Positions 4,089 to 8,287 of a stretch of 64,000 bases of DNA are shown here, in pieces (the stretch's first letter is position 1; each line of letters begins with the position of its first letter). Position numbers and translations under genes: made by a program. The stretch comes from Thiomargarita sp. GTDB lineage: Bacteria; Pseudomonadota; Gammaproteobacteria; Beggiatoales; Beggiatoaceae. Under the pieces are notes generated by a model. That model ran no database searches and was not told the DNA's origin. It worked only from the letters and a program-made list of their open reading frames with translations. Location of the stretch: contig DYNN01000001.1 in the NCBI GenBank assembly GCA_020721045.1, positions 1-64,000 on the forward strand, read 5' to 3'.

Positions 4089-4117
4089 TTGAAATAGGCT
4101 CTTATAAAAGTTATGAT
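4089..4117 (+). promoter_or_regulatory. sigma-70 type promoter for the 4149 gene
   Basis: TTGAAA at 4089-4094 and TATGAT at 4112-4117 are separated by exactly 17 bases, close to the sigma-70 consensus. Transcription would begin near 4124. The -10 box covers the in-frame ATG at 4113, so that ATG would not be in the message and the downstream ATG at 4149 is favoured. Confidence 0.6.
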
Positions 4118-4148
4118 ACCAATGTCAACATTTTATTGGATTTATTTT

Positions 4149-5663
4149 ATGAAAACATTTATCACTACTTTAATCGTTATTGTTTTAATTTTGTTTGGTT
4201 TAATCGGCGGTTTTTTTGCAGGAAAAGCAAGTAAAAATATTGAAACAATAGATAATTTTTCTATTTCACTTCATCAAGTTCAAGATGAAATGCGGGTTTT
4301 ACAAAGTAACTTTTCTACGCTGACCACAGAATTAGCAAAAAAAACGGGAATTATTTTTCAGCAATCTAATTTTGACCTTGAAGCCGCGTTAGCCAAAACG
4401 GATGCGTTGATTCAACAAGGAGAATTGGCTAAAGCTGCACTCTATTTTAGCAATGCACTGGCTCAATCGCCCAACCGCTTTCAAACAATAGAACATTATC
4501 AACAAACTGTATTGGCATATTGTCAACAATTAAATCAACAAGGTGACTACGAAACCGTGTTGAATATCTTGGTGGATATGGATAATTTTTTGCGTATACA
4601 AGCAATGGAGATAAAGCCACAATTTATTGATAAATTAGAGAAAATTTTAACTGAAATTGCAGATTTTAGGCAAACAGTGGAAACAGCCAGTATTACCAGA
4701 AATAATGAAGGAACGCTGAAGTTTGTTCATGAATTAACAAACAACAGTGGTCAATTATTAAAACAGCAACCTAAACTAGATATACCAAATATTACTGAAT
4801 ATCTTGAAAAATTGAAAGATAACCTTTTGACTTTACAATCAATTGATACCAGTATTTTTCAAAAAAACGAATTGGTGACATTGAATAACATAACGAAGCA
4901 ATTGAGTGATAAAATTGCCAGTGTTGAACCGCAATTGGCTGTTATTCAAAAACAATCGATGGTATCAGAATTTGTTCAACAGATTAATACGCTATTAAAA
5001 AAGGTCAAAGCTGAATCCACTGAATCTCCACTCATTTTATATTATCTCACCTTAATTGATTCTTTACTCAATCAGTTCGTTTTAATTGCACCTGATACTC
5101 AAGAAATGCAACTTCAATTGGTTAATTTTTCAAAAGAATTAGAGTTAGTCAAAGAAAATCTGGCTAAAGCTCATTCGCAAGCAGTTTGGCACGACATCGA
5201 TAAATTAATTTCGACACAATTGGTAATAGATAAAGACAGTAAAGCACAGGACGCTATCGTCAAACTTGTTCAACTCAGACAGTTATTTGCTGAAAAAGCA
5301 AACGGTTTAACTTCATTAGAATTTCTTGAAAAAGCCAAAGCACTACGCGATCAAATAGAAAAGACGATGGTAGATTGGCAGAATAAACAAGCGGATAACT
5401 ATAATCAGTTTGCAATTAAAAGAATTAAGAATTTATATGATAGTTATAAAAATCAATTGGGTGTGAATACAGATGAAGAAATTGTCTACAATGCAACCAT
5501 TGAACTATTAGGACTTATAGACACTCGCTATCTCTCTACTCCTGCAATGACTGCTTATAACGAAGTTTTTGGAAAATTTTACGCAGAATTGGGTGATGAG
5601 CAAAAAATTTCTCTCTCTTCCGAAATGACTTTAAAACAAAAAAAACCATTAACTGATTTTTAA
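4149..5663 (+). CDS. membrane-anchored coiled-coil protein, unknown function
   Basis: The product is 504 residues when started at 4149. One N-terminal membrane segment (residues ~3-25, ending in GGFFAGKAS) precedes a long, almost wholly helical, Gln/Glu/Lys-rich region with coiled-coil periodicity up to the C-terminus. There is no catalytic motif and no Cys cluster. A weak TPR-like repeat may lie around residues 80-130 (ALAKTDALIQQGELAKAALY). Its start follows the promoter at 4089-4117. The gene ends 16 bases before the exported nuclease-like gene, so the two are likely co-transcribed and may act together at the inner membrane. I do not recognise the family. Confidence 0.6.
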   Translation: MKTFITTLIVIVLILFGLIGGFFAGKASKNIETIDNFSISLHQVQDEMRVLQSNFSTLTTELAKKTGIIFQQSNFDLEAALAKTDALIQQGELAKAALYFSNALAQSPNRFQTIEHYQQTVLAYCQQLNQQGDYETVLNILVDMDNFLRIQAMEIKPQFIDKLEKILTEIADFRQTVETASITRNNEGTLKFVHELTNNSGQLLKQQPKLDIPNITEYLEKLKDNLLTLQSIDTSIFQKNELVTLNNITKQLSDKIASVEPQLAVIQKQSMVSEFVQQINTLLKKVKAESTESPLILYYLTLIDSLLNQFVLIAPDTQEMQLQLVNFSKELELVKENLAKAHSQAVWHDIDKLISTQLVIDKDSKAQDAIVKLVQLRQLFAEKANGLTSLEFLEKAKALRDQIEKTMVDWQNKQADNYNQFAIKRIKNLYDSYKNQLGVNTDEEIVYNATIELLGLIDTRYLSTPAMTAYNEVFGKFYAELGDEQKISLSSEMTLKQKKPLTDF

Positions 5664-5679
5664 TTAATAGGATAACTTT

Positions 5680-7053
5680 ATGAAATTTCAATTATTTTTT
5701 TGGCTTTTTTTAGTCAGCTCTCATTGTTTAGCCGCTGATGAGCATCACTATGAAAATGCCTTTCTTTATAGCCATGAAAAAACCGGTGTCGCAATTTCAG
5801 CCTTATCTGCGGGTCTTGCCCCATTTATGTATCAAAATGCAATGAGACAAATGACACCAATTCAAATTGCTGCAAATGAAACTGGCATTTTGATGGGTTT
5901 ACGAAATCGTCGCATAGACTATATTAATGCCGATCCCTACGGAGTTTCTGGTAGACAACGCATTTCTGAAACCATCGGTGAAATGGGCGCGCGTGCTTTT
6001 GCTAAAAAAGCAGGTTACACACCGCTTTATCAAGGCGCACCGGGAAAAGGAAGAGGATTTGATCAAGTTTATCAATTTGGTAAACAAGTGGTTGTTGTAG
6101 AAGCAAAAGGTGGAAGTAGTGCTTTGAAAGTTTATCGTGGCTATTTACAAGGAACGCCTAAATATACAGTCAAAGTTGCTCAAGAAATTTTAGCCAGCAA
6201 AACAGCTTCAATTCAAGCTAAACGTGCAGCAAAAGCGGTTATTGAAGCCTATCGTAAAGGCGATTTAGTGGTTCAAGCTGCTCATACCTCACATGTTTAT
6301 GGTAAACCCGGTCTAACGACAGTCCAAACCACTTATGGCAAAATCGAAAATCCGTCATTGATGGAACTTGCGCATCGTAGCAGCCTAAAACTGGGAATGG
6401 CAAGCGGTTTATTGGGCGGTGCATTTGAGTTAGCGAGTCAATTGGCGACTGAGCAAACAGTGAATTGGGAACAAGTGGCAAGTACGACTTTGATAGCAGG
6501 TGTCAGTGGTTATGCAGCCAATATGACAAATATGTTAGTACAAAATGCACTGATGAATAATCAATCACGTCTTGCGTCTGTACTGGCTACGCCGACAACC
6601 AGTTCATTCTTAGGCAGTATCAGTAGTGGTGTGGTAGCCAGCGCGGTATTTGCTTATGGCTCTTATTTTTTAGGCTATGCTGATTTAACCACCGCTAATA
6701 GAACGTTGACCACAAGTTTAGTGGGCACAACTGCTGCGGCTTTGACCAGTACGGCAACCTTAACTTTAGTAGCAACTTTGGGTACAGCAAGCACAGGTAC
6801 TGCAATTAGTGGTTTATCGGGTGCAGCAGCCACTAATGCGACTTTGGCTTGGCTGGGTGGTGGCAGTATTGCAGCGGGCGGCGGTGGTATAGCAACGGGT
6901 GCCGCAGTTTTAACGGCAGGTGTAGCAGCAGTGGCTATTGCAGCAACGGCAGGCGTAGTATATTTATACACTTTAGCCGATGAAAACACCGAGCGTGAAC
7001 GCGTGAATCATTTGGTTACTAGCGTGCATCGACAACTTTTAAGCACGCTTTAA
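5680..7053 (+). CDS. exported protein with PD-(D/E)xK nuclease-like domain and Gly/Ala-rich membrane C-terminus
   Basis: This 457-residue protein begins with a signal peptide (cleavage likely after SHCLA, about residue 18). Residues ~95-215 resemble restriction-endonuclease-fold toxins: E101 in a GEMGARAF helix, D128 in GRGFDQVY and the pair E141/K143 in VVVVEAKGG, followed by a Lys-rich helical region and HTSHVYGK. This spacing fits the E...D...ExK pattern of PD-(D/E)xK nucleases. Residues ~230-435 are Gly/Ala/Thr-rich and hydrophobic, like several membrane-inserting segments. Polymorphic toxins normally carry the nuclease at the C-terminus, so the reversed order is unusual. No immunity gene was recognised; the upstream coiled-coil gene is the only close partner. 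Nuclease activity is inference. Confidence 0.55.
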   Translation: MKFQLFFWLFLVSSHCLAADEHHYENAFLYSHEKTGVAISALSAGLAPFMYQNAMRQMTPIQIAANETGILMGLRNRRIDYINADPYGVSGRQRISETIGEMGARAFAKKAGYTPLYQGAPGKGRGFDQVYQFGKQVVVVEAKGGSSALKVYRGYLQGTPKYTVKVAQEILASKTASIQAKRAAKAVIEAYRKGDLVVQAAHTSHVYGKPGLTTVQTTYGKIENPSLMELAHRSSLKLGMASGLLGGAFELASQLATEQTVNWEQVASTTLIAGVSGYAANMTNMLVQNALMNNQSRLASVLATPTTSSFLGSISSGVVASAVFAYGSYFLGYADLTTANRTLTTSLVGTTAAALTSTATLTLVATLGTASTGTAISGLSGAAATNATLAWLGGGSIAAGGGGIATGAAVLTAGVAAVAIAATAGVVYLYTLADENTERERVNHLVTSVHRQLLSTL

Positions 7054-7306: not shown

Positions 7307-8287
7307 GTGAGTCAAGAAGAAACTAAGCATGCCAGAAATAATCTAATTTTAGTCACAATTTTAATAAATTTGGCTATGTTATTTGTTGTTGTTGCATTAC
7401 TCGTTGATAAGTTAGGTTTTAATTTTGGTAATGACGGTAATGCATTAACTCAAGAAAATGCAAATTTGTTAATTAAACCACTGGGACAAGTCAATATTGG
7501 TAGTGCTGATGCACCCACACCAGCAGCTAAGTCTCCAGCTAAGTCTCCAGCCGAAATGACTAAAACAGATAAAGCATTAGCACTGATCAATGAGAAAGGC
7601 TATATTTGTATGAGCTGTCATCAAGTGGATGCCAAATTGACTGGTCCCGCTTACCAAGACATTGCCACCAAGTATCAAGGTGATGACAAAGCTGCTGATA
7701 TGTTAGCCGCTAAAATAAAATCTGGTGGATCAGGTACTTGGGGTGAAATACCCATGCCACCTAATCCAACTGTCACTGATGACGATTTGAAAGTGATTCT
7801 TGATTGGATTTTAACAATGGAATCAGCCAAATCAGCACCCGCTGCAGAAGAACCCGCAAAATCATCTGAAGCAACAGTTTCCATGGATGCTACCACAGCA
7901 GAAGGCATGGCGGTAGTTGATGATAAAAAACAGTTAGCAACCAATACTGCCACTGAAAAAGCACAACCTGCTGATGCGATGGCAACTGATAAACCCGCTG
8001 AAGTTGCGACTGAAGCTGTTATGACGACGGATGACGCCATGATGTTAATTGCTGATAAAAGTTATGCTTGTCTTGCTTGTCATCAAGTAGATACTAAAAT
8101 GGTGGGTCCTGGCTATAAAGAAATTTCAGCGAAATATCAAGGTGATGCAGCAGCAGTAGATGCGTTAATTACAAAAATTAAAAATGGTGGTGTAGGTACT
8201 TGGGGTGAAATGCCCATGCCGCCTAATGCAACAGTTTCTGATGATGATGCTAAGGCATTAGTTGCTTGGATTTTATCTTTGAAATAA
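7307..8287 (+). CDS. membrane-anchored di-haem c-type cytochrome (two tandem class I domains)
   Basis: The GTG start is preceded by TAAGGAG. A short cytoplasmic N-terminus and one membrane helix (about residues 13-34) are followed by a Pro/Ala/Lys linker. Two homologous cytochrome c domains follow: haem motif CMSCH at 101-105 with Met ligand context GEIPMPP, and CLACH at 255-259 with GEMPMPP. They are joined by an Ala/Glu/Thr-rich linker. Each domain is of the c8/c551 size found in electron shuttles to terminal oxidases or denitrification enzymes. The protein should face the periplasm, anchored to the inner membrane. It has its own promoter. The redox partner is not indicated by the neighbours. 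Confidence 0.85.
   Translation: MSQEETKHARNNLILVTILINLAMLFVVVALLVDKLGFNFGNDGNALTQENANLLIKPLGQVNIGSADAPTPAAKSPAKSPAEMTKTDKALALINEKGYICMSCHQVDAKLTGPAYQDIATKYQGDDKAADMLAAKIKSGGSGTWGEIPMPPNPTVTDDDLKVILDWILTMESAKSAPAAEEPAKSSEATVSMDATTAEGMAVVDDKKQLATNTATEKAQPADAMATDKPAEVATEAVMTTDDAMMLIADKSYACLACHQVDTKMVGPGYKEISAKYQGDAAAVDALITKIKNGGVGTWGEMPMPPNATVSDDDAKALVAWILSLK

What the first reader, a model, noticed from the sequence alone, without database searches (positions are those of the whole stretch)
5680..7053. Exported nuclease-like protein with reversed toxin architecture
Seen: signal peptide, then an E101...D128...E141xK143 pattern typical of PD-(D/E)xK nuclease toxins, then ~200 residues of Gly/Ala/Thr-rich hydrophobic sequence. 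Polymorphic toxins carry the nuclease last; here the hydrophobic segment follows. The hydrophobic part could be a membrane-insertion or translocation module carrying the nuclease to a target cell, or an anchor keeping it in the envelope. No recognisable immunity gene follows.
Basis: partly seen in the sequence, partly recalled or inferred. Interest (0 to 1): 0.6.

Follow-up and report, generated by a model that had tools for sequence, protein, structure and literature searches.

The report
Exported nuclease with membrane-inserting tail
A relative of the giant sulfur bacteria makes an exported, probably DNA-cutting protein whose tail looks built to enter membranes; it comes with a membrane-anchored partner and probably works in the cell envelope, perhaps against incoming DNA, but this has not been tested.

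Summary
Window 5680-7053 encodes a 457-residue protein with a signal peptide, a PD-(D/E)xK nuclease region (94-222) and a Gly/Ala/Thr-rich C-terminal module. The tail module is not a private anchor: it matches PDC-M09A, a candidate anti-phage family of PADLOC (E 5.6e-22; 0 of 6 shuffles match). Three sister operons lack the nuclease region; in exactly these three the partner lacks an 84-residue segment, hinting at contact. The nuclease is the most conserved part, no small immunity gene is conserved, and unrelated bacteria pair the same module with separate nuclease-like or candidate defence genes. I read it as an envelope-located nuclease system, somewhat more likely guarding against incoming DNA than a classical polymorphic toxin, but this split is unproven. 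New variant of a known kind; function untested.

The parts
4113..5663 (+). Partner gene: one N-terminal membrane helix, then a TPR-like/coiled-coil body, invariant C-terminal F; alternative start ATG at 4149
   Evidence: Pfam TPR_14 only weak, E 0.0038
4158..4214 (+). Membrane helix of the partner (residues 16-34 of the 516-aa frame)
   Evidence: Kyte-Doolittle mean 2.73
4704..4955 (+). 84-residue partner segment that is missing only in the partners of nuclease-less operons
   Evidence: 80-84 residues in 9 of 12 rows, 3-17 in 3 of 12
5680..7053 (+). Exported nuclease / Gly-rich module protein, 457 aa
5680..5736 (+). Signal peptide (residues 1-19, end approximate)
   Evidence: Alignment; motif judged by eye, no signal-peptide program was available
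5959..6345 (+). PD-(D/E)xK nuclease region (residues 94-222)
5968..5970 (+). E97, invariant acid in the helix before the core
6061..6063 (+). D128, predicted metal ligand
6100..6108 (+). E141-A142-K143, predicted (D/E)xK motif
6148..6150 (+). Q157 of the invariant QGT..Y motif
6694..6993 (+). Gly-rich module matching PADLOC PDC-M09A (residues 339-438)
   Evidence: E 5.6e-22; control
6904..6960 (+). Most hydrophobic 19-residue segment of the tail (409-427)

Best explanation
A two-gene, envelope-located nuclease system. SHOWN by sequence: the gene pair is conserved; the second protein has a signal peptide, a conserved PD-(D/E)xK site and a Gly-rich module shared with candidate defence proteins. 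INFERRED: the upstream protein sits in the inner membrane by its single helix with its body in the periplasm; the second protein is exported, docks on it (through its conserved N-terminal stretch and, for the nuclease, an 84-residue partner segment), and inserts its weakly hydrophobic Gly-rich tail into a membrane as a paddle or hairpin. INFERRED and least certain: the nuclease cuts DNA that crosses the envelope (phage genome, plasmid or free DNA). The chromosome lies on the other side of the membrane, which would explain why no immunity gene is conserved.
For: Six full-length members keep E97, D128, E141, K143, Q157. Fold: the model of residues 69-226 (pLDDT 64.3, pTM 0.62) has helix, three strands, helices, strands, with D128 and E141 on neighbouring strands; of the 50 rows shown by VIA-align nearly all are, by my recall of the entries, PD-(D/E)xK proteins (Hjc, EcoRV, Hje, LHK-Exo, Cas4-like, VRR, FokI, R2), best Z 5.5. 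The nuclease is the most conserved region: 69% mean pairwise identity against 47% (20-66), 57% (223-304), 64% (344-432). Partner linked: of 11 loci, 10 have the partner immediately upstream; the eleventh lies near a contig end. The tail matches part of PDC-M09A. Outside the family 5 of 5 loci with the module (4 genomes) have a neighbouring ORF that matches PDC-M09B, PDC-M40B, PDC-M72B, or weakly NERD or GH-E nucleases. A second exported layout, a PD-(D/E)xK-like (two of three weakly NERD-like) gene plus a module-TPR fusion, occurs in G007, G008, G024 and outside the family in G093. Precedent: SNIPE, a membrane-bound nuclease that cuts phage DNA at injection (PMC13190303, passages).
Against: No activity, location or phage phenotype is known. 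PDC names mark candidates only; no paper naming PDC-M09 or PDC-M72 was found. The window's neighbours are housekeeping genes by the look of their sequences, not a defence island. Several module genes have no adjacent nuclease: type-B fusions in G006, G020, G033 and three nuclease-less sisters of the window gene; one (G035) sits beside a DUF726 hydrolase (E 1.4e-34). One partner copy (G032:C131, L061) has no downstream gene of this family. SNIPE's nuclease faces the cytoplasm, unlike the periplasmic side proposed here. Fold matches are weak one by one (Foldseek best E 0.03; Z under 8).
Confidence: 0.4

Rival explanations
1. Secreted antibacterial (or anti-predator) nuclease toxin: the Gly-rich tail permeabilises a target membrane and carries the nuclease in; the upstream protein is adaptor, anchor or immunity.
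For: The nuclease motif order E, D, ExK, Q, Y equals that printed for Tox-REase-6 (PMC3482391, passage). Distant relatives: L024 (E 1e-5; 33% identity in A4) and the C-terminal end of a frame of 1890 aa in G109 (E 3.7e-6 from L024), an architecture typical of toxins (recalled). A glycine zipper is needed for translocation of the DNase effector Tde1 (PMC10240207, abstract). The partner's segment tracks the nuclease region, as an immunity or docking part would.
Against: The nuclease is conserved rather than swapped; no small immunity gene is conserved next to it; the partner is kept where the nuclease is lost, so immunity to it is not its main role; a signal peptide does not fit T6SS delivery (recalled).
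Confidence: 0.33
2. Extracellular or surface nuclease for DNA turnover (nutrition, biofilm or mat DNA), anchored by its tail.
For: Export signal, conserved catalytic site, housekeeping-looking neighbourhood.
Against: Does not explain the module shared with candidate defence families, degenerate or nuclease-less paralogues in the same genomes (G032, G033), or the dedicated membrane partner.
Confidence: 0.15
3. The conserved core is an envelope-remodelling pair (partner plus Gly-rich paddle) in which the nuclease is an optional add-on.
For: Nuclease absent in L007, L012, L008 and degenerate in L011, L018, while both ends and (where the contig allows) the partner stay. Relatives of the module match dynamin-like LeoBC (E 1.5e-6, 9.4e-7, 4.3e-6); LeoA's paddle is described as glycine rich (PMC4159319, passages).
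Against: No GTPase or other remodelling enzyme is linked; the window protein itself did not match LeoBC at E 0.1.
Confidence: 0.12

Closest known systems
PADLOC candidate systems PDC-M09, PDC-M40, PDC-M72
   Same: Same Gly-rich module (PDC-M09A E 5.6e-22 to the window protein); in distant genomes the module gene sits beside PDC-M09B, M40B or M72B genes
   Different: The window form is exported, fuses module and nuclease in one chain, lacks the rest of PDC-M09A (match covers 96-196 of 282) and has another partner
Tox-REase families of polymorphic toxins (Tox-REase-5/-6)
   Same: Motif order E, D, ExK, Q, Y; distant homology to a C-terminal domain of a large protein
   Different: No Pfam REase family matched; nuclease is not C-terminal, not swapped, no small immunity gene
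SNIPE membrane-bound anti-phage nuclease
   Same: Nuclease tied to the envelope; membrane tether said to prevent cutting of host DNA (PMC13190303, passages)
   Different: GIY-YIG plus DUF4041, cytoplasmic side; here PD-(D/E)xK, signal peptide, Gly-rich tail
Tde1 glycine-zipper DNase effector
   Same: Gly-rich membrane-active stretch plus DNase in one chain (PMC10240207, abstract)
   Different: Zipper is N-terminal, T6SS cargo with an adaptor; the abstract mentions no signal peptide
LeoABC dynamin-like proteins
   Same: Module relatives match the 457-565 region of the LeoBC profile
   Different: No GTPase domain here; a direct match of the window protein was not seen

Membership tests
PD-(D/E)xK (restriction endonuclease-like) superfamily | Conserved D...(D/E)xK residues | tested here: met
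   D128, E141, K143 invariant in 6 of 6 full-length members and in L024
PD-(D/E)xK (restriction endonuclease-like) superfamily | Core fold helix, three strands, helix, strand | tested here: inconclusive
   Topology as expected at pLDDT 64; best matches are of this fold but Z 5.5 at most and Foldseek E 0.03
PD-(D/E)xK (restriction endonuclease-like) superfamily | Metal-dependent nuclease activity | not testable with these tools
   Needs protein
Polymorphic toxin systems | C-terminal, exchangeable toxin domain | tested here: not met
   Nuclease is internal and the most conserved part in 6 of 6
Polymorphic toxin systems | Linked small single-domain immunity gene | tested here: not met
   Only the upstream partner (411-528 aa in the 12 aligned copies) is conserved next to the gene
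Polymorphic toxin systems | Secretion and delivery to other cells | not testable with these tools
   Signal peptide only
PDC-M09 candidate defence system | Full-length PDC-M09A | tested here: not met
   Match covers 96-196 of 282
PDC-M09 candidate defence system | Gly-rich module of PDC-M09A | tested here: met
   E 5.6e-22; 0 of 6 shuffles matched
PDC-M09 candidate defence system | Adjacent PDC-M09B | tested here: not met
   The upstream partner matched no PADLOC family at E 0.1; downstream gene is a cytochrome c protein
SNIPE | GIY-YIG nuclease and DUF4041 | tested here: not met
   No Pfam match to either at E 1

The most novel reading that the evidence does not exclude
The Gly-rich module is a general membrane-entry partner for nucleases: different bacteria have paired it, by fusion or as a neighbouring gene, with several unrelated nuclease types. 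In this family the whole assembly was exported, giving an entry barrier on the periplasmic face of the inner membrane that cuts foreign DNA before it reaches the cytoplasm and needs no immunity.
Probability: 0.2. Interest if true: 0.75.

Novelty: new variant of a known kind. Interest (0 to 1): 0.5.

Why it matters
If right, it places DNA-cutting defence in the periplasm, solves self/non-self by compartment alone, and gives a testable meaning to a Gly-rich module that recurs in several uncharacterised candidate defence systems. If it is instead a toxin, it would be an unusual one with a conserved internal nuclease and a trailing membrane module. Either way the two-gene cassette is small and can be tested in laboratory E. 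coli.

Tried and rejected
Rejected: membership in any Pfam or NCBIfam family (only weak, sub-threshold hits such as ATPgrasp_Ter E 0.076, taken as chance); PHROGs (none for the window protein, best E 0.023 for other members); PDB by sequence (nothing convincing). Rejected: low-complexity artefact for the tail (0 of 6 shuffles matched; no DNA tandem repeats).

Led nowhere: full-length structure prediction (pLDDT 40.2, not used); single-sequence scan of genome contigs (none); viral contigs with the nuclease alignment (none); plasmids and phages by tblastn (none); nuclease profile in 398 genomes of the phylum (own genome only) and in 369 of the class (own plus G390). The genome-contig scan with the alignment found 5 loci whose contig lengths equal those of L002-L006, so it added names, not sequences. 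L075, L076 and L077 do not carry a convincing homologue and were dropped.

Independence of the joint loss: the three nuclease-less rows did not form one clade, but the test is marginal (AU p 0.037), the group was named after seeing the pattern, and long branches are involved, so one or two events.

A search in one library for PDC-M09, PDC-M72 and related terms and for glycine zippers in toxins, Beggiatoa toxins, periplasmic nucleases or Gly-rich polymorphic toxins listed no paper on this system; subscription journals and preprints are not covered.

Full report
What is there. The frame 5680-7053 (+) encodes 457 residues. It begins 16 bases after the stop of another gene on the same strand, 4113-5663. 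The protein reads signal peptide (1-19), a short N-terminal stretch (20-66), a linker, a nuclease region (94-222), an intermediate part (223-343), a Gly/Ala/Thr-rich module (about 344-432) and a charged C-terminal end. The window's genome holds a single copy.

Relatives. In the same family 14 of 42 genomes have any match at E 0.01. After reading the frames, I count 11 loci in 9 genomes as true relatives with both ends of the protein; the other places match only the Gly-rich module or fragments and were set aside. Six of the 11 (window, L002-L006) are full length, at 45-49% identity to the window in the alignment; two (L011, L018) have a degenerate nuclease region; three (L007, L012, L008) lack it. 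Genomes G032 and G033 each hold one full-length copy beside a degenerate or nuclease-less one.

Catalytic site. E97, D128, E141, K143 and Q157 are invariant in the 6 full-length members. In L011 the E-x-K remains but the D is not aligned (by eye). The order E, D, ExK, Q, Y equals that listed for Tox-REase-6 (PMC3482391, passage seen). A profile of the nuclease finds one further relative in 369 class genomes, L024 (E 1e-5), in which the D and E-A-K are kept; searching with L024 finds the window back (E 2.1e-4) and the end of a frame of 1890 aa in G109 (E 3.7e-6).

Fold. The full-length model failed (pLDDT 40.2). Residues 69-226 with 7 sequences gave pLDDT 64.3, pTM 0.62 and the order helix, three strands, two helices, two strands, with D128 at the start of the second strand and E141 at the end of the third. 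Foldseek's best match is 3fov (E 0.03), with Holliday junction resolvases also high; none reaches E 0.001. In VIA-align's 50 rows almost all entries are, by my recall of what they are, PD-(D/E)xK proteins; two (8a4b, 8a4c) clearly are not. Many rows are repeats of EcoRV and Hjc. Each Z is modest (5.5 at most; the tool warns that Z under 8 may be a common arrangement), so the fold is likely, not proven.

The tail. Only one 19-residue segment (409-427) passes a Kyte-Doolittle mean of 1.6 in the tail, and residues 343-422 hold no D, E, K or R. This is weakly hydrophobic and fits a stretch that can be exported and then inserted better than a fixed multi-pass anchor (inference). Residues 339-438 match PADLOC's PDC-M09A (E 5.6e-22); 0 of 6 shuffled versions of residues 305-438 match anything at E 10, while the real one does at 3.2e-20. 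The protein in L070 is a full-length PDC-M09A (E 5e-103) and also matches LeoBC weakly (E 1.5e-6). LeoA's paddle is described as glycine rich and a likely membrane-interaction region (PMC4159319, passages).

The partner. Ten of the 11 loci have the 4113-5663 homologue immediately upstream; the eleventh (L018) lies close to a contig end, and that genome has a partner gene at the end of another contig. The partner is found in 11 of 42 genomes: the nine above and two (G059, G061) where contigs end in or next to it. One extra copy (G032:C131) has no such downstream gene, so linkage is strong, not strict. The partner has one N-terminal membrane helix, a weak TPR match and a conserved C-terminal end. 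In an alignment of 12 copies an 84-residue segment is present in 9 rows and missing in 3, and these 3 are exactly the partners of the three nuclease-less proteins. Three further copies (in G059, G060 and G061), two of them truncated, were left out of that alignment; by eye they carry the segment. The tree does not join the three, but only marginally (p 0.037). The segment is therefore a candidate contact for the nuclease region.

The wider pattern. The module was sought in 274 class genomes: 6 have it at E 1e-6, two of them in this family. The 5 loci outside the family (4 genomes) each have a neighbouring ORF that is a candidate defence partner (PDC-M09B E 6.8e-179; PDC-M40B 3.7e-19; PDC-M72B 5e-29) or weakly nuclease-like (NERD E 0.0042; GH-E E 0.055; both below Pfam's cut-offs). 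Within the family a second layout has an exported PD-(D/E)xK-like gene followed by an exported module-TPR fusion in G007, G008 and G024; its first gene matches NERD in G007 (E 2.4e-4, 22.0 bits against a cut-off of 22.1), only at E 0.043 in G008, and not in G024, where the motif is read by eye. The same fusion lacks an adjacent nuclease in G006, G020 and G033. One module gene (G035) sits beside a DUF726 hydrolase. So module, TPR-like part and nuclease recur together in different arrangements, but not always.

Function. The nuclease is the most conserved region (69% mean pairwise identity; 56 of 129 columns invariant). Polymorphic toxins are described as having diverse C-terminal domains and linked immunity genes (PMC3482391, abstract start and passages); neither holds here. 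An envelope nuclease acting on incoming DNA needs no immunity gene, and SNIPE shows that a membrane-tied nuclease can stop phage DNA at entry (PMC13190303, passages), though from the cytoplasmic side. Glycine-zipper effectors show the alternative, delivery into prey (PMC10240207, abstract). I put 0.40 on envelope defence, 0.33 on a toxin, 0.15 on nutrition or mat DNA, 0.12 on membrane remodelling with an optional nuclease.

Novelty. None of the searches made lists a paper on this cassette; the library lacks most subscription papers. The parts are known kinds; the exported, fused arrangement with a dedicated membrane partner is a new variant.

Noticed in passing
L065:5452-7670; L066:1017-3124; L068:5109-7183; L094:516-2673: Second exported two-gene layout: a PD-(D/E)xK-like (partly NERD-like) gene followed by a Gly-module/TPR fusion, in three genomes of the family and one outside it.
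   Followed up: partly
L069:5610-7053: A Gly-module protein directly upstream of a DUF726 alpha/beta hydrolase (E 1.4e-34).
   Followed up: no
L092, L095, L096: Gly-module genes beside HNH-like (by eye), PDC-M40B and PDC-M72B ORFs; the PDC-M72B-like ORF has an E...GAD...LQLKA pattern that looks like another PD-(D/E)xK variant.
   Followed up: partly
L011:1369-2640 and L018:1486-2604: Sister proteins with a degenerate nuclease region, possibly pseudo-enzymes.
   Followed up: partly
L061:1037-2542: Copy of the partner gene without the downstream nuclease gene.
   Followed up: no
window 7307-8287: Membrane-anchored protein with two cytochrome c domains follows the gene; not conserved next to relatives, judged unrelated.
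   Followed up: partly
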